Below are positions 5,058 to 63,028 of a DNA stretch of 64,000 bases, piece after piece. Made by a program: the position numbers and the translations under genes. Numbering within the stretch: position 1 is the first letter of the stretch; every line of letters starts with the position of its first letter. Source of the stretch: Neelides folsomi (lineage: Eukaryota; Arthropoda; Collembola; Neelipleona; Neelidae); NCBI GenBank assembly GCA_034687125.1, contig JAQGBZ010000193.1, positions 54,838 to 118,837 on the forward strand, read 5' to 3'. A model generated the notes under the pieces. The model had not been told where the DNA came from. It ran no database searches and saw only the letters and a list, made by a program, of their open reading frames with translations.

Positions 5058-8000
5058 TTAATGAGCATATGCAGCATAGGCACCGGGACCAGCGTAATGG
5101 GCATATTGGAGAGGAGAGGCGTATTTAGCAACAACTGGAGTTGCAACGTGTTTCACAGCTGGAACTGCGACTGGGACTCGAGCGACGGCTTGAATGGCGT
5201 GTTTAAAGACAGTTGGTTGGTTAACAGCAACACGGTGGAATTTCGTGGCTGGTTCTTGAACTTCGACATCTTGGATGGTTTCAATTGGCCGAGTCACAAC
5301 AATTCTAAAATAGAAAACAATAAATAATGTTATTACCTTATTACTCAATCACTATATTTGTATTCCAAATAATTAATTTTTAATATTAAATACCTTCTAG
5401 TGGTGATTCTCTCTCCTCCTTGAAGTGAAAGATCTCCAAGAGCATCAGCAACTTGAAGGACTGAAGCGGAGTCAGCGGGCCTTCCATCCTCAGTGAGGAT
5501 TTCAGTAACGGTTCCTCCTTTGGCAGTGAGGAGATTGATCAAACGCTGTTGAAGCTCAGCGGGCATGTCAGGGCTGATGACACGGCCTTGTGGCAATCCC
5601 TGTGGCTGTTGTTGTTGTGGCTGTTGCTGTTGTTGCTGTTCTTGTTGTGGCTGTTGTTCTTGTGGCTGTTGGGGTTGTTGTGGCTGTTGGGGTTGTTCTT
5701 GACCTTGGGTGGAAGCTTCAATCACTTCAGTATCTTCATTGGATCTTTGAGCTGGAGCTGGGGATGGTTGTTGCTGTTGGGGTTGGGCTGATTGTGGTTG
5801 AGCGGTTCTTCCAGCCACGCGTCCTCCGACTCTTCCTGCAGCATCTGGAGTGAATCGTCCAGCAGCTCTCATTTGAGCGAACAAGGTTTGACCTTCTCCA
5901 TCGAGGATTTGACGAGATGCTCCATATCGGACAACAGGGGCATGATGAACAAAGTTGGTTGGGGTCAACACTGCTGGTCCCTATTAGGATAATTTCATTC
6001 ATTAGCGTAAAAGTGAAACTTAATGAATTAAACTATAAAAGCATCTGCTACACATCATTGTACATTTCTCCCAAGGAAATTGGCGAGATCCTTCTGATGA
6101 ATTGGCAATTATGCAAAGAGTGTCTTATTCAATTCAACAGGAGAAAACAAATGATGAATCAGCTCAGGTAAATTGTCTTGCTAATGCATTTGCAAAGATA
6201 TATCTAATGTGCATAGTTAGTACGTGTATAGTTTGAGTGATTAGAATGCAAATCACTTTCCTTATCCCGATCCCATCAGGATAAGATAAAATAAACAAAA
6301 GGATAAAAAATGGAAATGCTGAGATCCGGACCCTTATCTCTTTACGTCTTCACTCCCAAATCATTAGCAAAAGGGAGGTGAAGTGTTAAATGGGGTTAAA
6401 CAATTTTTTCAGAGTCGAGAGAAAGAGAATGGGAGAATGAATGGGCGATTAGGAAAAACATTAGGAAATCCTCAAGGAGTTCATCCAACTACTCTCGTCT
6501 AAGTAATAGAAAACATCCAATCTAACAATTGTATCAACTTTGTCGTTGACTCCTTCATCTCACACTTTGACACATCCACACACCAACACTCACCACAGAC
6601 ACAAAGAAGAAGGGAGGGATTGAGCTATAAAATCAAACTTGCTCTCTCCTCATAATAAATTTCTCATGATTTCATGCATTGCATCAGGTAAGGTCTAGAT
6701 ATACCATACAGGTATTATGTGTATTTATCATCGTGATCTCATCATTTATAAATTGATAAAAAGTGAGGTAATCAGGATGGGAATGGAAAAGGTGTGTTTT
6801 ATGGTGGAAGTGAGAAACGCAGACCTCCTGCTTATTCTTCATTAATCTACTTAATTTAACAGTATTACTCTTTGGTGAATGATTTTCTCCAATCCACACC
6901 TCTTTACCTTTTGTTCCTTTGAGATTGGTTGGGTGAGTTCAAGGGTGGCGGATCCCGCTGGTCGAATGATCACTCGGTGTTCAATGTCATAAAATTCTTT
7001 TCTAAGGGCTGGACGACGAACTTTGAGCTTCCTCGTGCTGACGGCGGGTTGAGCGACGTCCACAAGCTTTTGGGTAACTCCGTGGGAATAGGCGAGTTTT
7101 GTCACTGGAACGTCAGCAACTCCGGCAACCTTTGTGAGCACTGGAGTAGCGGCATATCCAACCTAAATATAACAACGATCCAAATTGTTTATTGTATTGT
7201 TCAAAGTGTTGAGTAATTCGTTAAATTAAAAATCCTATTAGCATTGTAATATCGGTAAATTAATTACGTATGGTTGATATTGATGTTGATAGTATTGTTG
7301 TTGATGGTAGTGGTTGAGCGGCAAACTTACCTTTTGGTGAACGGCAAGAGCTGGAGCAGCAGCATAGGCCAGTCTTTGTGGATGAGCATATGCAACTGGG
7401 GCAGCAACCTTTGTAGCGTAGGCTGGAGTAGCGTAGGCTGCAGCGGCATAGGCTGGAGTAGCGTATGCTGGAGCAGCGTATACTTGGGCAGCGTATGCTG
7501 GAGCGGCGTATGACACTGGAGCAGCAACCTTGGCCACAGCTGGAGCAGCGTATCCCAATGGAGAAGCGTATTGGTATTCGGCTGGGACAGCACGGTGGAA
7601 TTGTTGCTGGGCTTGCTGTTGTTGTTGGGCTTGGGCTCCTTCAGCTGCATTTCTTCCAGCAGCTTCTTGGGAATCTTGAGCGTCTTGCTGTTGCTGTTGC
7701 TCTTGTTGCTGTTGCTGTTGCTGTTGTTGAAGCTGTTGTTGTTCAGCAGCAAATTCTTGGGCTGCTTGGTCTGCAGCGGCAGCTTGCTGTTGTTGTTCAT
7801 CATGTTGCTGTTGTTGTTGTTGTTGCTGGGGCTGTTCTTGTGGTTGGATAGGTTGTTGTGGTTGAAGTTGGGGGAGCTATTGGGAAAATGGGATTAAACG
7901 TTTAATTTCAATGCAAACTTTTAATTCAATTAAACAATAATTTATTTAGCTTTTCGATGAATAACATATATGATTCCAAGTTCTAAAAGCTCTAAATAAC

Positions 8001-8370
8001 ATATGTAAAAATTCATTATATTTTAAAAATATTTAAAATATTTACTCGACTATAAATAAATTCATAAAAAATATTATTTTTTCCAAGAAAAAATTATTTC
8101 AATTCATTTATTTTAAAGATTTTTTATCTTACAAGTTAGATATAAGAATATCTTAAGTATAAAACAATCTTTGTAGATTATAAAAATAATAAAATGTCTA
8201 ATGTTATGATTTTGCCAAAAGTATAAAGAGGAATTAAAAAAACTTACTGGTTGAGGATCGGAGCTTCCAAATCCAAAGTAGGTGACTCCGGCCGGGTTTT
8301 GGAAGGAGTAACTTCTGAAACCCGCCTGGCTCAACGCCACTGCACCGAGGAGTACGAGGAAGCACTTCAT
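5058..8370 (-). CDS. Secreted AYAAPA/Gln-rich cuticle-type structural protein
   Basis: Five exons, minus-strand order: 8248..8370, 7331..7876, 6908..7162, 5394..5980, 5058..5304; phases close to 585 aa. Residues 1-16 (MKCFLVLLGAVALSQA) are a signal peptide. Residues 42-140 are Gln-rich, encoded by mixed CAG/CAA. Residues about 160-215 are AYAAPA/AYATPA repeats typical of arthropod cuticle and eggshell proteins. Exon 3 encodes a non-repetitive block including KVRRPALRKEFYDIEHRVII, probably a folded domain. Exon 4 has a second Gln/Pro block and ERITTRR. Exon 5 returns to Ala/Val/Tyr-rich sequence ending AAYAH. No chitin-binding RR consensus is visible, so it belongs to a low-complexity cuticle class. 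The first intron is about 370 bp and the third about 930 bp. Likely a matrix protein of the exoskeleton; the exact family is unknown to me. Confidence 0.82.
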
Positions 8371-8450
8371 GGTGTGGATGTTTATCTTATGGAGAGATTG
8401 TTGAGGGTGGCTCTCCGCTTTTGAACTGGTTTTGGGTGACCACCAAGATG

Positions 8451-8460
8451 TTTATATATA
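8451..8460 (-). promoter_or_regulatory. TATA box of the cuticle-type gene
   Basis: Reads TATATATAAA on the minus strand, 81 bp upstream of the start codon at 8370. This is suitable for transcription starting near 8425-8430. A strong TATA box is usual for highly expressed, stage-regulated cuticle genes. Confidence 0.65.
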
Positions 8461-17400: not shown

Positions 17401-20261
17401 TATTTATGTAATATTGTGTGGACCATATCATATATCTGACAGTACATACATCAGGAATGCATTGCGTATTATTTATTAATTGTACCAATAAAGAGAAAAA
17501 AGTAACAATTATTCGCGTTAATGTATTCTTAATTGAGGCCCGTAGGCATACTTAACATCTTGTAGAAGGATAATTAAGCAAGTAGGATTGAAATGGATAT
17601 GATAAGCTTTCAGGGTTGATCCATATACTCAATGAAATTAAGATAAGTTATTTCCGAGATTTGAAAGAAAAGCAATGTAAGTGACACCTCACAAGGCACT
17701 CAACTTTGTCCAAAATTGTAACTTGGCTTGTCTAATATACGAAAAAATCCCTTTGCTAAAATACAGCAGACACAACGGCGTGTATGATAGAATATTTTAC
17801 TTTTGGACATGTGCAAACCTACATAAATGCAATAAATCCATTATTGTGACTTGCTCACTTGATTTTAATCTTGACATTTTACAAGAGAAATACTTTTTGG
17901 TAAAGGCATAATTACATAATCTAATATATGAAGTGTGGTGCAGTTTGCAAAGCCACTCGATTCTCTCATTCTTAAACATAGCTCAGACATTCAGACATTC
18001 ACCAAAGTCAGATAATTTAAGATGAAGTGCATTATTGGGCTTGAGAGTATAAAAAATATAAAGGGACCGGTTCCTATTGTATCAAAAAGCTCCTACACGG
18101 ATTCAGTGACAGGAGATCGTCTTAATTGGGTCAAATGTGGACTCTTAAGCATTTAACCACGTAAAAAATGACATTGGGATTAACACCAGTCTTTACATTA
18201 AAATTAAATAAATTATATGCATCCTAATTAGAAATAATTATAATTTAGATTACTTATAACAGCAAATTAAAGATACCGACCTTACTCATATAAAAAATAT
18301 TTATCGTAATTTACAAATATAATACCTATGTAGTATTGTAAGATTTTAAAGTTTAATTACTACTTCTCAATCGTATTTTGTATTTACCCTATTTTAATTG
18401 GATCAATCAGCTTGGAGCGATTTCAACTGCTAAAAATAAGAATAGAATGAGTTATTGTATAACTTCAACTTATAAAATATTTGTTTATGCTTTGAACATG
18501 CTAATGACCACCATTGAGTTTGGAATTAGAGATTGGACAACGGATGCATAATAATTTCATTGATTAGCTCATCCAATAGCGCTACTTAACTAAATTGGTT
18601 TAGAAGGTGAAATTAAAATATTTCAGGTAGATCTATTGAAATATGCAGCAAATCTATTCGCAAATAATTATAAATACACACCCATGCTACTACATAGGTA
18701 CATATGAAAATATTATATATAAAATTATCTTTGTATTTGAAATTTGATGAGGAATGCTTAAAGAATAATGGAATGAGAGAGGGGAGAGACAAATATAAAT
18801 TACAATTGTGCCTTTGTATTTAACTCTTTACCCTTTCTATCTTTCGAAGCCATTCATAGATGTTTGCCTCTTTGTTGTTATTTGCCAATTCATAAAGAAT
18901 CATTTATAATAAAGTTTATCGAGTGAGTTATATAAGCAGAAATGCATACATGGCATATACCGACAAACACAAAGTTGATCAGCACGGATTTTGTGTCCCT
19001 CGGAGGTCTTTTTCATCTGTCAAACTATACTAATTGCATTCCTAACCCTCACGCCCATTCTCACTTTTAAATCCTGATTTTTATTGCTGATACGCTTCAT
19101 AGAAGTTCATATATTTGTCAATTGGAGAAGATATGGGTGTTGTGTGAGTAAAAGTTAAATTATCATCTTTGGGAAAACGCAGACCTAAGGCCAAAAAGAC
19201 CAATTCGATTTCAATCTTTTGTGCGAGGCTTTTGAGCACCAAACAAGATTAAATTTTCACATTTATTATCCAATGATTCAAGAGAGTGAGATAATAAAAC
19301 TTTGACTTTTAAAAGGGTTTTTAATTAAATTCTCCCTAAACGAATTTTTAATTCTGAAAAGAGAACGTGTGTGTTTTGCAATTGGCGTGTTGAAGTGAAA
19401 ATAGACGATTTAACTTACGCCAATTGCCTCATTTGTCTTCTCGAGTCCATTCATGATCTTTAGTTAATAAAGGGCATTATAAGATGATCTCACCCTTTGG
19501 ATCAGAATTATATGATTAATATTTATTGGAGTCTGGTCTTGGCATAACCTTAGAGGGACAGGGTCACCTAATTAAAGATATGGATTTTGAATCAGCTCAC
19601 AGCAGTAGTAGAGAGGTTGAGAGACGTTGGCCTATATTTATTCCTCTCTCCTTTTTCTGACATGGATCTCCCAGGGCACCCTTAGCACTGAGGTTTAATT
19701 GGGCGGTGGTGGTCGAATTCCTGCGAGGTAAACCAACCCAATCCCGTCAATCCATTAAATGTAAACGGTTATCAAACTCTCGTCAAATGACTATAAATCA
19801 CCGCGCATTGTTGAATAAGAACAGAGGAACAATCAATGTTTTTGAGACGCAACAGGAGGGTCAACATCTCATGTTTATTCGCTCAATCGAATGATATTGG
19901 ACCAGCGGCTTCATTTTTCCTTTTTCTCTTTCAAGGTGCCAGAGCCTGAATGTCCAATTACCTCAACTTAGAGATTATTTAATAAGATATTATATTAAAT
20001 GCAGAACCTGAACCGCTAACTGAATGCGAGACCTTTTGAGTTCTTTTTTTTTACTTCATGCAGGTACCTTTGATTTGTTTCTAATCTCTAAATGGACGGC
20101 TCAAGTGACTCAAGTCCTCCAATGCTTCCTTAAGAGATAAAACGGAAAGTGAGCGAATTGGTTATTATTCCATAATTGAATATGAAGATACTCATCTTGC
20201 CTTATAATAGTAGTTGTGAACAATTGATGGCAATTATAAAAGAATATGATCCTTATGTGTA
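8471..20261. other. Gene-poor region of about 11.8 kb
   Basis: I could not find any ORF here with recognisable protein features or any set of exons that join. Composition alternates between very AT-rich stretches and somewhat GC-richer patches, for example 8.5-9.2, 10.5-11.8, 16.0-16.7 and 18.9-20.1 kb. The patches could be regulatory sequence or non-coding transcripts, but nothing in the sequence proves it. A short ORF at 8497..8730 lacks neighbours, signal or homology. Confidence 0.5.
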
Positions 20262-20651
20262 CAGGGTGAGGCTAAAGTCGCTTCGTTTTGTTCAAAATCA
20301 ATCATATCTTTTTTATTCTTTAATAGATTTTTATTAAAATGGCTGGTATCTTCCTTAGAGTATATCATATCATATAAAAATGAAATTTAACTGGTTAATT
20401 AAGGTAAATCTTGGCTTCGATACACAGAAAACCTCCTTTCTGAAGTCCTTTTCTGCGGGAAATCACGTTTTCTCAAAGAAAAGTGACTGTCGTTTATTTA
20501 ATGTTTAGCCTGTTTAACCATTTCGGCTTATATTTGGATACATAATATATTGATATATTCCCCATCGAATTGCTATCATAAAAGATTTTTATCAATAATC
20601 ACCTTTAAGTTATTAAATGATTAAAAACGAAGCGACTTTAGTCTCACCCTG
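20262..20651. mobile_element. MITE of Tc1/mariner type, 390 bp
   Basis: Near-perfect terminal inverted repeats of about 30 bp: the left end reads CAGGGTGAGGCTAAAGTCGC and the right end is its reverse complement with one mismatch. The element is flanked by TA at 20260..20261 and 20652..20653, the duplication made by Tc1/mariner transposases. The interior is AT-rich and has no transposase ORF, so it is non-autonomous. Confidence 0.88.
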
Positions 20652-20653
20652 TA

Positions 20654-21072
20654 TGGATTTTTATCAAACCTATCTATAATTGCAGTTAATCATCCATGAT
20701 TCCTAATAAGGTTCCTTACAATGCTTAATTTCCACACTCTAACTAACATTAAGATAAAATGTATTTTTTCTTATTAGAATATCGGGGCAAAGAACAATCA
20801 ACTTTCAACTGCAGTGATAATGCACCATACGCTCCTTTATTTATTTTATCATCAATGAATATCGGAATGAATTTTTGGAATTATGGGTTTTTAATTAGCG
20901 AATTTCATAAGAACTTTGAGAACTGCTTCGTCTACTGCATCAGTAACTTCTTTTTGAAAGGAGCTCGGACATTCTTTTTTCACTCCCTCTGTATCTCCTA
21001 ATAAATTACAAACAAAAGTTAAGTCCAATTTAACATTAATAAACATACCAATAAACCTTTTTATTAAATCAG
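20654..21072. other. Intergenic spacer
   Basis: An 80-aa ORF at 20759..21001 (+) has no signal peptide that I trust, no recognisable domain and no exon partner. I treat the stretch as non-coding. Confidence 0.45.
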
Positions 21073-22956
21073 TTAAAATAACAATATAATAATACTTTTA
21101 ATAATCGTATCCACTCCAGATTCTGAATGTGCATGGGACGTTCCTTTCTTTCCAGATTGTGCCAAACTGTTGGCGTCTGCAGATCCAATATCTAATATTC
21201 AAAAGGAAATGATAAAATTATGATTACCAATAAGCAGATGTTAAACAACTAATAATCCTATTTACTTAAGGATTGTATTATTTCAAGTTCATGAAAGTAA
21301 TTGCCCTTTATTTGTAAAAAGAGCGAAACCATATTTAAGAAACTTTTTAATATTCATATCAACTTTTTCATATAAAAAAGATGATAAAGAGAAAAAAGTT
21401 TCCAAATTATTGAATAAGCAGAATTGATAAAGTTTTGTGCCTCCGGTTATCAACGAAAGCGCATTGGCTTGTGAATAGCCTTCATATCCAGAAATTGCAA
21501 TCGCATTATGAACTTTGTGCGATCTTTTTTCTCGTAGATGTTCAGAAGGAGGGGAAGAAGTTTCTTCGGAAATTGGTGACGTCGTTGGTCCGACATTCGA
21601 ATCGGTCGAAGAAATCTTTTCATTATGTCCCAAGCTGCTCTTACTGTCACTTTCATTCAACTTCGGTTTGGTCATTTGAGTCAATGAAGTATCATTCTTT
21701 GTGTCATTCATTGACGGGATTTTATTTGTTGTTCCAAGGAGAGCCTCCTTAAGGGTTTCTTTAATTGCCTTTGTTAAAGATACTTGTGTGCTGACGATGT
21801 CAACAGAACAACCTTCAGGCAATCCTCTTTTTGTTCCTGGTATTGAAAAAACAAATAATTACAACTAATTGTATGTGATATAATTGAAAAGCTATAAATC
21901 TTTTATATAATAAAATATGATGAGCTAATTGTTGGGTCTAAATCATGAGATTACTTTGTGAATTATATGACGTTGCGCTTCCTTGGGCAATGGCTAAGCT
22001 TCCCCCAATAGCTGCTGATTGTTGATTTGCTGAGCCTCCTTCAAATACACATAAGTAGATTGAATTGATGTTTGTAACTTTGAAATGATTTTTAAAAAAT
22101 GAATCTTTACCGATAGCTGTGGCCGCTCCATTTGCAATGGATGAACCTTCACCTTGAGTTACAGCCAATGAGTTTTGTGAAGCATGCCCATCTTTTAAAA
22201 TTTATAAAATCATAAATAAATCATTTATAAATTTATAATAATATAGAGGTAAATACTTATTTCAGTTCAAGTTTATAATTAATGGATAAATAAGAAGTGA
22301 GAATTAATGATGATGAATTACTGAATGCGTTGGCTTTTCCGTCGGCTAAAGATGTTCCACCAAAACCAGAAATTGCAGCCGAATTTTGTTGAGCATTTCC
22401 TTTATTTAAATATAAATTATAAATTACATTAAAATATTTTATTATGTTCTTATAAAATGTCAAAATACCATTGAATGCAGTTGAAGTTCCCTGTGCAAGT
22501 GCTAATCCATAATTTCCTGCAGCTGCTAAAGATGCCTGAGACGCCAAGTTGGGTCTGCCTCTTAAACCTATTTATTTTATGATTCTATCATCGAATTTAT
22601 GAGAATGCCAAATTTTGTTATAAAGTACCAAACAAATTTGTAATTTTATTTTTAATAAATTGAATGCCAAAATGCTTGATAATTCAATTACCTTCTAAAT
22701 ACGCACTTCCTGCAGCAAGTGACGTTCCTCCTGGATGGTCACTAAAAGCATTCGAAGATTGACCAACAATTGTTCTAACTTCATAAAAGTAAAAATAAAA
22801 AGCTTGAGTATTTATTCAAAGACAATTTATTGATACAATTAGAATTTTTATATCAAAATTTTTTTAAATATATTCCAAACAAATATTCTCACTTTGAGCC
22901 CCTTGAGATAGTCCAATTATTGAAAACACTGTAAAAATTGTATTGAATTTATTCAT
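21073..22956 (-). CDS. Secreted Gly/Ala/Ser-rich modular protein (silk-like), eight or more exons
   Basis: Minus-strand exons: 22893..22956, 22692..22778, 22469..22567, 22322..22399, 22111..22191, 21955..22038, about 21441..21836 and 21073..21191. Every junction is phase 1. Exon 1 is a signal peptide (MNKFNTIFTVFSIIGLSQG). Exons 2-6 each encode one 26-33-residue module rich in G, A, S, N and Q, such as SAAISGFGGTSLADGKANAF and SLAVTQGEGSSIANGAATAI. Exon 7 encodes a hydrophilic Ser/Thr/Lys-rich stretch and KRSHKVHNAIAISGYEGYSQ. Exon 8 is another module ending in a hydrophobic tail (IIKSIIILLF), possibly a GPI signal. The exon 7 donor is uncertain: a phase-correct GC donor after 21441 gives 335 aa, and a GT donor after 21330 would add a less likely tail. 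I do not recognise the family. Structural secretion is an inference from composition. Confidence 0.7.
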
Positions 22957-23089
22957 TATGAATTATGATTATATGTACCTATGTGTGTAATTAACTTATT
23001 AACTTTCTTTGATACACAAAATTCAACAAGAATTTTCTCTGTGAAAATAACTGACCTTTTAATCAATCACACTCGTCATTGATCAGCTA

Positions 23090-23097
23090 CTTTTATA
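23090..23097 (-). promoter_or_regulatory. TATA box of the Gly/Ala/Ser-rich gene
   Basis: Reads TATAAAAG on the minus strand, about 135 bp upstream of the start codon at 22956. It is the only strong TATA motif between this gene and its divergent neighbour. Confidence 0.5.
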
Positions 23098-23983
23098 CAC
23101 AATTAAAATCATATTAGGACTTATTGCGTCATATCAAAACAATAACAGTCTCGATTAATTGGATTTGTATAGTTATTGCAATATTTAACAAGCAATAGTA
23201 GTAGAAATAATATATTATCTAAAATTAAATGCGTTTGACAATTGCATACATTTGAAGGCTAAATGTAAGTCAAACATGACATACCGGTATATACAATATC
23301 TCATTATTTGTATTATGTACTGTACATTAATATTTTCATTTAGATTTCTCAATCATTTTAACTAAACTTAAAATTATAAACTATCCCAAATCACATGTCT
23401 CTAATAATTTTGTAAGTTAATGGCTAAGTGCTTTCAAACGACTTAAGAAGAAACTCCCTAATTGTAATGATTTGAGTCAAAAGACATTCTGTCAAGAAAT
23501 GCAAATAACAAAACAACTTGTTAGGAAAGTTTACACTTACGATTTATTAATTAGCTGGATTTTCCAAAACTTTCCACCAAGACTAATTTTATATAATAAA
23601 CATCCAATTTCATGTGTTTACTTTGTAATAAAATGATGTAACAATGATGTTAATAAACGAATTAAATGAGGCTCATTGAAAATGTTTATATTTCTTACCT
23701 TGTGATCATCTTTGTTCATTTTAAAATTATGTAGTTTATTTGAATAATGCATATTATGTTGTGAAATATACTAGATAACACTTTGATCATCGACCAATTA
23801 TGATTATATTTTATTTCTTACATCCGCGTTTGACATTTCAACAAAGTCATTAATGAACTTTAGTATATTTCCAAATCATTGAAGCTTAAATAGCGGCCTC
23901 AAACAAATATTAAATTAAGATATTGATTCGGGTTTATTTCTGCTTTGAATAAAATAGTTCTAATGCCCATATTTGTATTCAAG
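23098..23983. other. Spacer between divergent secreted-protein genes
   Basis: AT-rich, with no ORF or repeat that I can support. It should hold the control elements of the gene at 23984 and possibly of its divergent neighbour. Confidence 0.45.
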
Positions 23984-24526
23984 ATGTTCCATTTGTTTGT
24001 AATTTTATTTATCATGCAATCGTCTTTAGGTAAAACATAATTTTCTACTGCTTATTAAAATTTATAGTCAGCTTTATAAACAAATAATTATATTTTAGAG
24101 GCGCATATTTGAATAAATAATAATATGCAATGGTTTAATGGCATTAACGGTGTACAATTTTTGTCACTTTGAATAGGGAGAATTGAAGAATTGAATTCGG
24201 TGACAACTTCTTTTGCATCTTCTGGATTCAGGGGACATTCGGTAGCAACAGGATATGCTGGAGGAGGATCAGCCACAGCAATTACAAAAGATTACGGCAC
24301 GGCCATTTCTAATATTTATACTCCAGGTTGAAAATAATATTATGTTAATCAATGCAACTTTGATCTTGCTCATCATTAGTATTTACAATGATTTCAGAAA
24401 ATAACGATCTAATTGACTATTTTATATTGATATTTATTAGACTATAATCCTAACGTTTTTCAAGATCAAAATACAGCTATTACTGGAAATCATGGAACTT
24501 CAATCGGAGCAATCAATGGCAAATAA
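23984..24526 (+). CDS. Small secreted Gly/Ser/Thr-rich protein, 93 aa
   Basis: Exons 23984..24029, 24177..24326 and 24441..24526; introns are GT-AG and phase 1. The signal peptide is MFHLFVILFIMQSSLG. The mature part contains VTTSFASSGFRGHSVATGYA, GGGSATAITKDYG and a C-terminal NTAITGNHGTSIGAINGK. An in-frame upstream ATG at 23963 would add MPIFVFK; I preferred 23984 because it has A at -3. The make-up resembles one or two modules of the gene at 21073..22956, including the alternating hydrophobic/Gly/Ser pattern, the exon phase and the signal-peptide exon. I do not recognise the family. Probably extracellular. Confidence 0.72.
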
Positions 24527-25032
24527 ACCTTTGTTTAATTAACAGATAATTAGCATTTATTATTTACTCTGTTCCAGTTTAACACATCACTAAAATTTCA
24601 TTAAAATAAGTATAACATATTATGTAGCATACTATATAATAAGTAATATGTACTAAAATTGAATGCAATAAAAAGAATCTTTCTCTTTCCTCTACTTTCT
24701 AAAATCTTTTCAATTTTGAAAAAAACAAAGAGTCTTATAGTCATTCCTTACAATATTATGTACAAATTACCTAAATCAAGAATTTTTCTCATCTATCATC
24801 TATTAGTGATTCATAAAACTGTGAATCATATGCATATTAAAAGGCTCATTATTTTGACATTTGGGCAATCTCGGGAAACTGGAAGGTTGAAATTAAGGAG
24901 TTTAAGTCCAAGATTAGAAGACTAATGAGCGTAAAATGAAAGCAGGACATATATTATCCAATTCACTTGTTTCCCAACAGCCCATCATAGAAAATACTCT
25001 CTAGGGTCTCCAAGTTTTCAAGAATCTTTACA
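24527..25032. other. Spacer between two same-strand secreted-protein genes
   Basis: Holds the 3' UTR of the 93-aa gene and the promoter of the next. The ORF at 24659..24925 (+) encodes an AT-driven, Lys/Ile/Leu-rich peptide without support and is left out. Confidence 0.45.
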
Positions 25033-25544
25033 ATGATCAAGTTAATAATTTTTTCAACGCTCCTTTATATCGCGGCTTGTAATACTGAAACTGGACCTTT
25101 GCCATCAGGTAATTTATCATTTTAATATTATACCTAATTAACATTAGGTATTAAAATCATTAAATAAAATCTTTAATTTTTTAGACAAGGCTGCTTGGCG
25201 TAAAAGTCGATCAATACTTGAAAACATTTCTCAATCTGGATTCAGTGCAAACGCGGATGGCGGAGGAAGTTCATTTGGATCAGCAGTTGGAGGACATGGC
25301 AAGATAATTCACATGCTGTTTATTAATTCCAAAATTAAATATTTAATTTAAAATTTAATTTAAATTGAACTATTGTATAAAAAGAAATATTTGATGTAAA
25401 TTTGTTTTAACAGTGCCATCAAATGCAGTAATAGGAAATGCACAAGGTGTTCACTACGATAATGCAGCGACTCCGACAGGCCCTGGAAAAGGCTATTTTG
25501 TAATTATCCCTTTACTTGGACTTTCTTATCTTCTTCAATTGTAA
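25033..25544 (+). CDS. Small secreted Gly/Ser/Asn-rich protein, 106 aa, with a GC-AG intron
   Basis: Exons 25033..25108, 25185..25298 and 25414..25544, all phase 1. The signal peptide is MIKLIIFSTLLYIAACNT. The mature part has ENISQSGFSANADGGGSSFG, then NAVIGNAQGVHYDNAATPTG, and ends in a hydrophobic tail, GYFVIIPLLGLSYLLQL, that looks like a GPI-anchor or membrane segment. Intron 2 begins with GC rather than GT (CATG|GCAAGA); reading through it instead would meet stops. It lies 506 bp after its neighbour on the same strand and shares the three-exon plan, so the two probably arose by duplication. Function unknown. Confidence 0.7.
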
Positions 25545-26291
25545 ACTTTGTCAACAATCATTTATACTTACAATACTTTGGATGTCTTCTATTCGTATAG
25601 GTTCGTTTAGAGAGTGTTCTCAATGAAATGAACAAAATGTGGCAGGAATTATTCGAAAGACTCAAATCCCTTTCATACTATGTAGCTATTTGAACTTGAA
25701 TAAAAGCAAACATTTGAAGAGCAAAATTTTAAATTATGTTTTCACAACAAATGCAAATTCAATTACATGCATATCTTTCATGAATCTACTTAAATATGTT
25801 TACAGTATACCTAGGTATACACTCTTCTATTATCCTTGCCTATTCCTAAACTAAAATGGGTAGTTGAATTATATTACCTACATACCTAATATGGATTATA
25901 AGTTTTTCACCAACATTCCTGATTTGATGGTTCAACAAAGATGAATAAATAAAATGTCAATAAAATTATAATGATTCTAAATCTTTTAACATAACATAAA
26001 TATAATATGGATACTCTTATTTTATTGGAAATGAAGCTCGAAGCAGTTGAAAATATTCTCTTGTGATATGATGTAGATATATGATCTTCGCTAGTTTTAG
26101 TCCTTTTTCAATTGCATAGATAATGAATTGAATGCGAGTTCGAGTAAAAGGTAAAATGAAAAACATAATTAACAAATTGAAAATTGAAAATTAACTCTAA
26201 AAATTAGGAAGATTTAGAATTAAAAATCATTTTTGTATCAATTGAAGTTGAAGAATTCCAATAATATCAATTTTATTATTATAATTGTGAC
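25545..26291. other. Spacer after the 106-aa gene
   Basis: 3' UTR followed by AT-rich sequence. The ORF at 25639..25854 (+) shows no signal, domain or splice partner. Confidence 0.45.
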
Positions 26292-26474
26292 AGGACCGGC
26301 CTTATAGCTTGGTATAAATTTGGAGGCCCTAGGCAAGGAGAATTTTGAGGCCCCCAAATTTTATATTTATGTTATATAAGGTTTTCTTGATATAGTATGT
26401 ATTAGTTTATATCAAATTTATCTTTTATTTCGCATAATGAATAGCCAAATATCCTAGATTTTTTTCAAAATTCA

Positions 26475-26760
26475 AACAAAAATCTGCTACCGGAATGACC
26501 TTTAGGTCCCGATAAAATTTTTAAAAATCCGGATCAAAAATCTCTAAAGGGGCCTTTAGGTCACGAAAAGTTTCTTGAAAATTTGGACTAAAAATCTCTA
26601 GCGGTACCTTCAGATCGTGAGAATTTTTTTTAAAACACAGATAAAAATCCCCGATAAAGATTTTTATTAGACTAGAATTTTTTTATAGATTGAGACTAAA
26701 AAACTGTATTAAAACCTTTGTGTTCCGTGAATTTTCAGAGCAATTTTGACAAAAATCCCT
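26475..26760. repeat. Degenerate tandem repeat, unit of roughly 55-60 bp
   Basis: Successive copies start with AAAAATCTCTA or AAAAATCCC and contain a CCTTTAGGTC(A/C)CG-like core, then a T-rich run. At least three copies are readable, at about 26480, 26538 and 26598, before decay. Lies inside the hAT-like element. Confidence 0.55.
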
Positions 26761-26926
26761 ATTGATGATCTGAATATTAGCCACAAGATATATTTTATAC
26801 CAATTGGTATTCCTAGCTAAAAATATTCAAAATTATATACGACTTTGACGAATTTTTTTAATACAATTCCTATAAGTTTATGACAAAATTTTAAGTCATT
26901 TTATCTAGTGTAGAGGACAATTTTTT

Positions 26927-26958
26927 GAGGCCCTAGGCGGCCGCCTAGGGCCTCAATG
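26927..26958. repeat. Perfect 32-bp GC-rich palindrome
   Basis: One half-site is TTGAGGCCCTAGGCGG, followed directly by its exact reverse complement with no spacer. It stands out in an AT-rich neighbourhood and is probably a subterminal repeat of the surrounding element. Confidence 0.85.
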
Positions 26959-26960
26959 GA

Positions 26961-27349
26961 TTGTGATTCAGAAGATTTCATGGTCTGGAGTTCATTGACC
27001 GAAAAAAGTATGCAAAAGAATAGGAATTCAGTAATTAAATTAAACTCAACGTTTAAAATGGCAGGGAGAAATGAGAATATTCATTGTATTTATGTAAATT
27101 AATATCTTGGAGTTAAATAAAAATTTTGTGCCATATAAATTGATATATTTGCCATTAAAAATATTTTTGAACAAATTGATTTATTAAATATAAAAGGAAA
27201 GTGACTTCATTCTTTCAAAGAAATTCTTCATTATTTGATTCATTTCATTTAGAGCATTATTTAAACCGACCTATAAGAAAATACAATCACCAATTTAACA
27301 AAAATTAGATTTTTATAAAAAAATTGAAAGATTCCAGAGAATATGGAAA
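26961..27349. other. Spacer upstream of the 98-aa gene's 3' end
   Basis: AT-rich, with probable 3' UTR of the minus-strand gene that ends at 27350. No coding signal seen. Confidence 0.45.
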
Positions 27350-28196
27350 TCATACAAAATAATCTTTTTGTGTCTTTTTCAGATTATCATATTCATTGTC
27401 CTGTCCATAATATCCATTATTAACATCTGATTCTGAAGGTACGGGTACAGGTGCAGGTACATTTGCTATATATGATCAAAAGTGGTTGTATATTTTATGA
27501 TTTTTTAATATTAAAATATTTAAATAGTCTTAATATCGTTTTTGAGTACATTTATTAACATTTTCAATTAACAATTAAAAATAATAAAATATATCGTAAC
27601 AATATTATTTTTATAATAAGTCATTTTTATAAGTAAACAATATAATAACAAAAATGTTAATATGATTTACATGATTTATAATAAGTATTATAATTTATTC
27701 GTGTAATACAATTATAATATTTAAGATTAGTTTTTTTCTATGTAAAGATTTTAATGCTAAAAATCGCTAAAGCAGTCAGAATTGTAAAACACAGAGAAGC
27801 CTGATGTGATGGTACGCTATTGTCTATTCATCAATCATAAAAAATTAAATATTTTTTTATTTAAATGTAAAGCAATTTAAATATTGCTTTAAATATTACA
27901 AAAATGACTTACAGGTATCACATCCAATTGATTGATCAATGGCTTGGCCATTGACTGAACTAGCAGAGTTCCCAGTTTGAGTTATTCCGGATATTACATC
28001 TCCATTATGGCTCTGGCATATAATGCTCTTTCCTTTAATTAATATTTGATAAAAATTTGTAGCCCCCAATAAAATAAAAATATTTTTATTATTAAATATT
28101 TACGAAAGTGAAACAAAAATAAAAGCTTTTTTTACCCGCTTGTGTTGCAGAAATGAAGATCAAAACAAACATGAAGGATAAAACGGATGAATTCAT
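27350..28196 (-). CDS. Small secreted Gly/Asn/Gln protein with Pro/Val stretch, 98 aa
   Basis: Exons 28136..28196, 27913..28032 and 27350..27465; GT-AG and phase 1 throughout. The signal peptide is MNSSVLSFMFVLIFISATQA. The middle exon encodes ICQSHNGDVISGITQTGNSA and SVNGQAIDQSIGCDT, with two cysteines that could pair. The last exon encodes PAPVPVPSES and a Tyr/Asp/Asn-rich acidic tail ending DYFV. It shares the exon plan (61-nt signal exon, two phase-1 exons) and module flavour of the three preceding secreted proteins but lies on the opposite strand. Extracellular role inferred from the signal peptide; family unknown. Confidence 0.7.
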
Positions 28197-60900: not shown

Positions 60901-63028
60901 TTATTTTATCCTTTTATTACTCGATTTCCTGTAAAAGGAATTGACCAAAAGAGATCTCCATTATATCTATCTGTATTTTGAAATCTGTATTCTCCATTTT
61001 CAAGAATTTCAGTATCTAAAGTGTGAATTCTGTAAAAAAAATTACAAGATAATATAGAATATTATAGATTTATAGACTTGTCCAATACACACGTTTCTGA
61101 CCTACATATTTGCGTATGCCAAAAATATTGTAAAATATATAACAGTATAAATTTCACATATTATGTAAAATTGTATGTAATATGAATGTTAAATACCGAT
61201 TTGTCAATTGAATTCCGTCCGTGAAATGCTGTGAGCTTCTGAAATATATTGCACTCTGGCAGTTAGTTGAGAGTCCAGAACAAAAACATTGAGAGCATCC
61301 AACGGGATTAAATTGACTCAATCCGAAATATCCTGGCTTGCAAATGTTACATGTTGCTCCCATTACATTCGCCTATATCAAACATTAATTATATGTAATA
61401 CAATAATTGTATAAATTTTAAACTTTTAAACGCGTGAAATTATTTAATTAATAGAATTAACATAGATTATTATTAAGGTATTTGTAGTATGTAGAGAAAA
61501 ATAAATTAGGTAAAAGTACTTTTACTTACTTTGCAAATACAAAGAGATTCATGTTGAAAGGCCATTCCTCTCAAGTCACAAATGCAAGGAGTACAAGTTA
61601 TGGATTTTGAACATTCTGGACAAGGACGGCAAGGATTTGGACAATTGTCTCGACAAGGACTTGGGCATTTTTGACAAGGACTCGGACAATCTTTACAAGG
61701 GCTTGGACATGTGACATTCCCACAAGGCGAAGGACAAGTTGTACAATTTGCACACGGTGGACAAATTACATTAGGAGGGTCACAAGGTTTCGTTGGAGGG
61801 CATGTAGTGTCAGGTGGGCATTCCTTCTGTGGCGGACATTCATCCTTAATATCACAAGGAGGCCTAATTGGGCATTCTGGACATTCTCGTTGAGGTGGAC
61901 ATTCATTTCTCTCACATTCATCGCAATGATCATCGCAATAGTCTCTTTCTCTTCTGCATCTATTACACCCTCGAGAAATGCATCTTCGTTCGCAATCTCT
62001 GTTCGAACAACTGTGGCAACTTCCACATTCTCGATCACAACGTGATATTTCGCCCGAACAAGTGTCACACCTGGCTTTCTTTCTATTATACTCATCATCG
62101 CGGTTTGAGCCCCTTGGTGGACATTTCCCATCACCATTTGAACATTTCCATTTGTCCGTACGTTTACAGTCGTAGGGATATTCATCATTTTGTTTACATC
62201 CAGGAGAACAACTCCTACAGCCTTTACCAGTGTATTCTTCTTGGCATTTACATATTATATCCCCATATGAATCTTTGTAACATCCTCCATTGAATCTATT
62301 CAAATAATTAATTTTCATTTCATCACTCTTATTATTTATCATTTATCATTACATTAAGCTTTATTTATCCTGTTATTTAGCTTTATTTATTAAATTATAT
62401 AGCAAGTCCATTAAACAAATTCAACTTTAATTTGAAAGTTTAAATATGAGTTAAATATATTAAGTATGTAATATTTATAAAATACCTTCCTGATGCCGTT
62501 GGGCACGGGCAATCTTTACATTTACCATTATCTCTATAAGTTCCTTCTCTACATGTTGTGTCAATTGGAACGCAAGGACCACAGTAACTTCCATATCCTT
62601 CTTCACGCTCGGTTCCACTCGGACATTCCTGATTAATGTGATTAATATCAGATTTAAATTATTGGTAATTTTACTCATTAATGGGGAGTTGATATTTCAG
62701 AATTCAATGATATGTTTATGGAGGTTGGCTTATTAATTAATAATACCCCGCATTGACGTCCATTATTTCCATTAAAGGAAACTGATTCAGCCAGGCTGAT
62801 GATTCCCAAAACGATGGTCTGATTGATAATGACAACAATGAGAATGAGTGATGTTTTAATTTAAGAATTGTTGAATTAATTTAAGAGAAAACTTTAAAAT
62901 ATCAATTTGAATCTTAAATAAGACCAATAAGACACATAATTCGGTATGATCTGATATTATTAATTTAATTGATATTGTATTTAACATCTAAAACTTACGA
63001 TAATCGCGACTTCAGTGATGTGATTCAT
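57973..63028 (-). CDS. Secreted laminin-IV/Ig/LDLa matrix protein (perlecan-like), 1022 aa
   Basis: Fourteen exons: 62999..63028, 62747..62818, 62486..62628, 61530..62295, 61197..61372, 60921..61029, 60597..60755, 60264..60536, 59965..60136, 59474..59731, 59137..59282, 58734..59045, 58424..58551 and 57973..58297. The signal peptide is assembled across exons 1-2 ([17 protein letters not shown]). Order: Cys-rich region 30-337, including a CPSPC-repeat block; laminin EGF 337-395 ([17 protein letters not shown]); laminin IV (LamB) about 396-575, ending [17 protein letters not shown]-like 577-634; Ig-like regions about 634-720, 725-870 and 873-965; LDLa 969-1005 with the calcium motif [12 protein letters not shown]; basic tail. 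LamB plus Ig plus LDLa is the perlecan (trol/UNC-52) toolkit, but perlecans start with LDLa and end in laminin G. Probably extracellular matrix; a paralogous or lineage-specific protein. Confidence 0.85.
61530..62295 (-). repeat. Cys-Pro repeat domain encoded by one exon
   Basis: A single 766-nt exon of the matrix gene. Its second half encodes repeated C-P-x-x and C-P-S-P-C units (for example [19 protein letters not shown]) with few other residues. The first half is Cys/Arg/Asp/Glu-rich. Cysteine spacing is too regular for chance. No named domain recognised. Confidence 0.8.

What the first reader, a model, noticed from the sequence alone, without database searches (positions are those of the whole stretch)
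21073..28196. Cluster of four small secreted Gly/Ala/Ser/Asn-rich proteins sharing one exon plan
Seen: genes at 21073..22956 (-), 23984..24526 (+), 25033..25544 (+) and 27350..28196 (-) each start with a 46-76-nt signal-peptide exon, use only phase-1 introns, and encode modules in which hydrophobic residues alternate with G/S/N/T (e.g. AISGFGGTSLADG, AITGNHGTSIGAING, AVIGNAQGVHYDN, VISGITQTGNSASS). I recognise no named family. Inference: a local duplication family of structural or glandular secretions (silk, cement, filament or eggshell).
Basis: partly seen in the sequence, partly recalled or inferred. Interest (0 to 1): 0.75.

Follow-up and report, generated by a model that had tools for sequence, protein, structure and literature searches.

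The report
Two pairs of small secreted-protein genes
A stretch of what looks like an arthropod genome carries four small genes for probably secreted proteins, which fall into two related pairs rather than one proven family and may be parts of an extracellular material; they look like real genes with some unusual features, but nothing shows that they are a new kind of system.

Summary
Four spliceable genes with signal-peptide exons are there. The set is two pairs. Gene 1 has seven degenerate copies of a ~27-residue G/A/S/N module (z=12 against shuffles); gene 2 carries two more (best non-self hits of the gene-1 profile in the window). Genes 3 and 4 are paralogues: same exon phases (1,1,0) and homologous last exons (15 of 28 residues, z=15) with hydrophobic residues at 7 of 7 heptad places, predicting a short coiled coil. 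No link between the pairs could be shown. Hydrophobic/polar alternation is not above chance. Gene 1 has two RxKR furin-type sites. Pfam and NCBIfam (four proteins) and the PDB (gene 1 and two profiles) gave no accepted match, but no eukaryotic genome collection was searchable, so novelty is open. Best reading: secreted matrix or gland proteins that self-associate; rival: furin-cut peptide precursor. Transcription, function and species are untested.

The parts
22893..22956 (-). gene 1 exon 1, signal peptide (by eye)
   Evidence: ATG, hydrophobic core, donor GTGAGA, phase 1
22692..22778 (-). gene 1 exon 2, module 1
22469..22567 (-). gene 1 exon 3, module 2
22322..22399 (-). gene 1 exon 4, module 3
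22111..22191 (-). gene 1 exon 5, module 4
21955..22038 (-). gene 1 exon 6, module 5
21441..21836 (-). gene 1 exon 7: RTKR site, Cys + helix, Ser/Thr-rich linker with three N-glycosylation sequons, REKR site, module 6; its 3' donor is a tentative GC donor
   Evidence: (helix at residues 13-33 of the exon model, block pLDDT 87 and 93)
21096..21191 (-). gene 1 exon 8, module 7, ending IIK/R
23984..24029 (+). gene 2 exon 1, signal peptide (by eye)
24177..24326 (+). gene 2 exon 2, module
   Evidence: 9.9 bits
24441..24526 (+). gene 2 exon 3, module and stop
   Evidence: 12.9 bits
25033..25108 (+). gene 3 exon 1, signal peptide (by eye)
25185..25298 (+). gene 3 exon 2, Gly/Ser/Ala-rich; GC donor (GCAAGA)
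25414..25499 (+). gene 3 exon 3, ends ...YF, phase-0 donor
   Evidence: (I1)
28136..28196 (-). gene 4 exon 1, signal peptide (by eye)
27913..28032 (-). gene 4 exon 2, Ser/Asn/Gly-rich, two Cys
27356..27465 (-). gene 4 exon 3, ends ...YF, phase-0 donor
   Evidence: (I1)

Best explanation
The locus holds two pairs of duplicated genes for small secreted proteins. In pair A (genes 1 and 2, head to head) a phase-1 exon coding a ~27-residue Gly/Ala/Ser/Asn module was duplicated repeatedly in gene 1; gene 1 is a precursor that a furin-type protease probably cuts at RTKR and REKR into a five-module chain, a Cys-helix/linker chain and a two-module chain with a second Cys-helix tail. In pair B (genes 3 and 4, tail to tail) a short G/S/N-rich chain ends in a 25-residue heptad helix that probably makes the chain oligomerise. 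The most likely role is a self-associating component of an extracellular material or gland secretion. Shown from sequence: modules, splice-compatible exon plan, homology of the gene 3 and gene 4 last exons, heptads, furin motifs. Inferred: transcription, secretion, cutting, oligomerisation, role.
For: Gene models with consistent splice phases. Seven gene-1 modules alike, z=12, 0 of 1000 shuffles; gene-2 exons are the top non-self hits of the gene-1 profile over six frames of the 64-kb window, 12.9 and 9.9 bits (E 0.011 and 0.0038) against a best of 4.0 bits in the reversed control. Genes 3 and 4: last exons z=14.9, 0 of 2000 shuffles; whole mature proteins z=16.9, 0 of 1000; 72% complementary over 90 nt as an inverted repeat; 13 of 24 changes at third codon positions, p=0.028; hydrophobic residues at 7 of 7 a/d positions in both, shuffle p=0.004 and 0.002; AATAAA at or next to both stops. 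RxKR occurs twice in gene 1; 0 of 5000 shuffles have two. Exon-7 helix predicted with block pLDDT 87 and 93. Low Cys, near-neutral charge and G/A/S/N-rich repeats fit a low-complexity structural secretion.
Against: No transcript or relative could be examined. No accepted Pfam match, so no silk, cement or cuticle family is indicated. Residue alternation expected of simple beta strands is at chance. The one structure job with modules gave a single helix (residues 7-61) running through module 2, a translated intron and the start of module 3, with block pLDDT 88-96 at residues 11-50; the intron spoils it, but it does not favour beta structure. Without their last exons genes 3 and 4 are only weakly alike (z=2.8, p=0.019). 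The gene-1 tail helices do not show a significant heptad pattern (5 of 7 and 4 of 7, p 0.13 and 0.61) or moment (p 0.14 and 0.12). One gene-1 donor (after exon 7) is a weak GC donor.
Confidence: 0.42

Rival explanations
1. Gene 1 (and perhaps its neighbours) is a furin-cut multi-peptide defence precursor, working like Drosophila Baramicin A (furin sites between tandem repeats) or like Gly-rich hymenoptaecins with internal repeats.
For: Two RxKR sites between repeat blocks. PMC8423362 passages describe Baramicin A as cut at RXRR sites between tandem repeats and name furin-processed Attacin C; PMC2853521 passages describe Gly-rich hymenoptaecins, one with four internal repeats, and nasonins duplicated as exons between phase-1 introns.
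Against: The would-be pieces are near neutral (net +3 counting the site itself, -2, 0, -2), whereas many such peptides are cationic (recalled); no Pfam match up to E=10, with HMMER's filters dropping most matches above about 0.1.
Confidence: 0.2
2. All four genes are one family, diverged too far for sequence tests. Not exclusive of the best explanation.
For: Neighbouring, similar composition, signal-peptide exons, 14 of 16 introns phase 1; gene 2 exon 2 against gene 3 exon 2 p=0.037 before correction for 85 exon pairs.
Against: The nine-module profile does not separate genes 3 and 4 from their shuffles; the four between-pair whole-protein tests give p 0.065-0.62; none of the 26 listed hits of the gene-1 profile is a gene 3 or 4 coding exon.
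Confidence: 0.25
3. Secreted proteins delivered to a host or prey by a feeding gland, if the animal is a parasite.
For: Small secreted labial-gland proteins without known domains or orthologues are reported from a parasitic copepod (PMC9107468, passages read).
Against: The species is not known here; those proteins are described as rich in charged residues, unlike the near-neutral repeats here.
Confidence: 0.1
4. Genes 2, 3 or 4 are decayed copies or chance open frames.
For: Exons are short and one gene 3 donor is GC; no transcript evidence.
Against: Profile hits for gene 2; homologous last exons with intact frames and third-position bias in genes 3 and 4.
Confidence: 0.08

Closest known systems
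Barnacle Gly/Ser-rich cement proteins (GSrCPs, related to the 19-kDa cement protein)
   Same: Gly/Ala/Ser/Thr-rich low-complexity blocks flanked by more charged, complex blocks (passages of PMC5099703)
   Different: No homology shown or testable here; the modules are about 27 residues in separate phase-1 exons, with furin-type sites and short helical tails
Copepod egg-string cement proteins (FCGS1-6 of the salmon louse)
   Same: Arthropod gland secretions with signal peptides that form an extracellular material (PMC6947537, outline and passages)
   Different: FCGS proteins have EGF and TSP1 domains and FCGS1-5 are Cys-rich; gene 1 has 2 Cys in 363 residues and no Pfam match
Furin-cut or repeated defence precursors (Baramicin A; Gly-rich hymenoptaecins)
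   Same: Furin-type sites between repeat blocks (Baramicin A); Gly-rich internal repeats (hymenoptaecin)
   Different: Near-neutral pieces and no family match

Membership tests
Barnacle GSrCP / 19-kDa cement proteins | sequence homology to known members | not testable with these tools
   no eukaryotic protein collection on hand; phmmer of gene 1 against the PDB gave 0 hits at E<=1, which covers only solved chains
Barnacle GSrCP / 19-kDa cement proteins | low-complexity Gly/Ala/Ser/Thr blocks flanked by charged blocks | tested here: met
   in gene 1 only: modules 1-5 are 73% G/A/S/N/T/Q and are followed by a charged helix/linker; definition from passages; composition alone is not membership
Copepod FCGS cement proteins | EGF and TSP1 domains, high Cys | tested here: not met
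   no Pfam match in genes 1-3, one sub-threshold Tup_N in gene 4; Cys counts 2, 0, 1, 2 in whole proteins
Attacin/hymenoptaecin-type Gly-rich AMPs | match to a family profile | tested here: inconclusive
   no Pfam match of this kind up to E=10; which of these families Pfam holds was not checked, and weak matches are mostly filtered
Attacin/hymenoptaecin-type Gly-rich AMPs | furin-type processing sites | tested here: met
   RTKR and REKR in gene 1; none of RxKR type in genes 2-4, one RKSR in gene 3
Attacin/hymenoptaecin-type Gly-rich AMPs | immune induction | not testable with these tools
   no expression data
Fibroin or spidroin silks | terminal-domain or repeat profile match | tested here: inconclusive
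   no Pfam match for genes 1-3 and only sub-threshold Tup_N for gene 4; which silk models Pfam holds was not checked

The most novel reading that the evidence does not exclude
A lineage-specific extracellular-material kit built from exon modules: one gene makes a furin-cut polyprotein of G/A/S/N modules and Cys-helix tails, and neighbouring genes supply short chains that oligomerise through a coiled-coil tail, so that assembly is controlled by cutting and by tail pairing.
Probability: 0.2. Interest if true: 0.55.

Novelty: new member of a known kind. Interest (0 to 1): 0.33.

Why it matters
If the reading holds, it adds a small, gene-clustered set of low-complexity secreted proteins in which module copying by phase-1 exons can be read directly from the genome, and it gives concrete tests (furin cutting, tail oligomerisation). 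If not, it is an ordinary pair of orphan duplications. It also shows how a reading by eye can stop at the first in-frame stop past a donor: the last exons of genes 3 and 4, which carry the strongest evidence of kinship in the cluster, were missed.

Tried and rejected
One four-gene family: unproven. Alternating beta pattern: not above chance in 5 of 5 regions. Egg-string cement of the copepod FCGS type: rejected on domains and Cys content. Kinship of the gene-1 helix tails with the gene 3/4 tails: 4 comparisons, p 0.08-0.44; likeness between the two gene-1 tails is only suggestive, p=0.011. Further copies elsewhere in the window: six profiles run; hits outside the cluster stayed below the best reversed-control hit for four of them and were slightly above it for two (6.2 against 5.4 bits for the gene-1 tails, 6.0 against 5.3 for gene 3/4 exon 2), all at E above 0.4, so I count none. 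In one search a five-sequence module profile reached 9.3 bits in its reversed control, close to the 10.6 bits of a gene-1 module left out of it, so short-module scores near 10 bits need care. Relatives in prokaryote genome contigs (gene 1) and IMG/VR (gene 4 only): 61 and 7 pattern stretches, none confirmed. PDB: gene 1 none at E<=1; the two profiles only hits at E 0.22 or worse; genes 2-4 were not searched there whole. NCBIfam none for four proteins at E<=1. Whole-genome look-up: none held. Structure: the only contiguous stretch used with two modules includes a translated intron (mean pLDDT 76, pTM 0.42); the exon 7 job has mean pLDDT 59, pTM 0.24. No fold search was run on either model. Nine paper searches were made and six papers opened (passages of PMC5099703, PMC9107468, PMC2853521, PMC8423362 and PMC8600823; outline and passages of PMC6947537); no description of these proteins was seen in the listings or passages, which does not show that none exists. 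In PMC8600823 the three passages for 'silk' were only in its reference list.
Full report
What was checked. The region was read on both strands and four spliced models were built. Gene 1 (-) has nine exons from 22956 to 20891 (363 aa), gene 2 (+) three from 23984 to 24526 (93 aa), gene 3 (+) four from 25033 to 25693 (122 aa), gene 4 (-) four from 28196 to 27184 (125 aa). Of 16 introns 14 are phase 1 and 2 (the last of genes 3 and 4) are phase 0. Two donors are GC rather than GT: after gene 1 exon 7 (GCACAA, weak, tentative) and after gene 3 exon 2 (GCAAGA). Signal peptides were judged by eye; no predictor was on hand.

Why the missed last exons are likely real. An inverted repeat of 90 nt, 72% complementary, lies at 25592-25681 and 27190-27279 (I1). 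Read as exons these give VRLESVLNEMNKMWQELFERLKSLSYYVAI in gene 3 and VGLNNALNEMNQIMKNFFERMKSLSFYI in gene 4, with 15 invariant columns over the 28 shared positions. The exon-to-exon score is z=14.9, 0 of 2000 shuffles; it ranked first of the 85 between-gene exon pairs (my count from the exon lists), of which 25 were printed. The next best, gene 1 exon 3 with gene 2 exon 3 (p=0.0025) and gene 1 exon 4 with gene 2 exon 2 (p=0.003), would not survive correction for 85 tests on their own. Of 24 nucleotide differences over 27 codons 13 fall on third positions, p=0.028. Both last exons are preceded by a phase-0 intron after ...YF and have AATAAA at or beside the stop. Hydrophobic residues fill 7 of 7 a/d heptad places in both (shuffle p=0.004 and 0.002), which predicts a short coiled coil. 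Without the last exon, genes 3 and 4 are only weakly alike (z=2.8, p=0.019). Gene 1's last exon has moderate support: matching phase, AATAAA soon after the stop and a modest likeness to the Cys-helix segment of exon 7 (p=0.011).

Modules. Seven gene-1 exon pieces share a degenerate pattern, roughly NSxAxSGxxGTSxAxGxA; their mean pairwise score is z=12 above shuffles, 0 of 1000. A profile of the seven, run on all six frames of the window, finds gene 2's two coding exons as the best non-self hits (12.9 and 9.9 bits, E 0.011 and 0.0038); the reversed-sequence control reaches 4.0 bits. None of the 26 hits listed there is a coding exon of gene 3 or 4. A nine-module profile gives genes 3 and 4 0.5 bits each, reached by 359 and 174 of 1000 shuffles. 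Whole-protein tests: gene 1/gene 2 p=0.008, gene 3/gene 4 0 of 1000 shuffles, the four between-pair tests p 0.065-0.62. So there are two pairs, and one family is unproven.

Architecture and mechanism. Gene 1 reads: signal peptide, five modules, RTKR, a Cys and a helix (residues 13-33 of the exon-7 model, block pLDDT 87 and 93 at residues 11-30, the rest low, mean 59), a Ser/Thr-rich linker with three N-glycosylation sequons, REKR, two modules, IIKR, Cys tail. None of 5000 shuffles of its sequence holds two RxKR motifs. Cutting there by a furin-type protease is inference from the motif. Genes 3 and 4 read: signal peptide, G/S/N-rich exons, heptad tail. Gene 3 also has RKSR near its N terminus, a minimal site. 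The gene-1 helices lack a significant heptad pattern or hydrophobic moment, so the coiled-coil argument covers genes 3 and 4 only. The most economical role is an extracellular material or gland secretion whose chains associate through the tails; no step of this has been observed.

Results against the reading. The claimed alternation of hydrophobic and small polar residues is not above shuffles in any of the five regions, and in gene 1 modules 1-5 it is lower than in most shuffles (0.39 against a mean of 0.48). The structure job with two modules (first row: module 2, translated intron, module 3; seven rows in all) gave one helix over residues 7-61, high in confidence over module 2 and the intron; the intron makes it unfit as evidence, but it does not favour beta structure. 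No accepted match came from Pfam (best: Tup_N, E=0.033, below its cut-off, on the gene 4 tail), NCBIfam or the PDB (gene 1 and two profiles). The defence-precursor rival keeps some weight, because furin sites between repeats (Baramicin A) and Gly-rich internal repeats (hymenoptaecin) are both known there, though the pieces here are near neutral.

Surroundings. Genes 1 and 2 are head to head, their ATGs separated by 1,027 nt; genes 3 and 4 are tail to tail with repeat-containing DNA between them. A TATAAAAG lies 141 nt before the gene 1 ATG and TATAAGAA 86 nt before that of gene 4; genes 2 and 3 have only looser TTAAATAG and TATTAAAA matches (no chance control). ARAGORN and Rfam found nothing in the window. 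Elsewhere in the window Pfam gives matches above its cut-offs in 4 of 10 open frames scanned: UPF0240, eIF2A, an epoxide hydrolase N terminus and a laminin B domain. Cuticle-protein-like Ala/Tyr/Pro repeats at 5-8 kb (by eye) suggest an arthropod. I considered a caligid copepod from recalled base composition, but nothing here tests the species, and the copepod and barnacle comparisons are analogies.

Verdict. Very likely real genes, boundaries corrected, two duplicated pairs, function inferred. Novelty cannot be judged without eukaryotic collections; orphan low-complexity secreted proteins are common in arthropods (general knowledge, not searched), so interest is moderate.

Noticed in passing
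window 20205-20708: Inverted repeat arms (20205-20289 and 20624-20708, 71% complementary; a 30-nt part 97% alike) that look like the ends of a small non-autonomous transposon just beyond gene 1.
   Followed up: partly
window 26296-26964: Stretch between genes 3 and 4 with a 48-nt near-palindrome at 26917-26964 and three 54-nt direct repeats at 26499-26660, possibly a mobile-element remnant.
   Followed up: partly
window 22400-22468 and 22039-22110: Two gene-1 introns (69 and 72 nt) are multiples of three without in-frame stops, so retaining them would keep the frame; may be chance.
   Followed up: no
window 25500-25544: Read through instead of spliced, gene 3 would end in a hydrophobic tail resembling a GPI-anchor signal by eye; an alternative form is possible.
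   Followed up: no
window 61509-62342 (-): Long open frame very rich in Cys and Pro repeats with no Pfam match at E<=0.01, near laminin-domain and, by eye, LDL-receptor-like exons.
   Followed up: no
window 5061-8451 (-): Glutamine-rich and Ala/Tyr/Pro-rich frames resembling arthropod cuticle proteins by eye.
   Followed up: no
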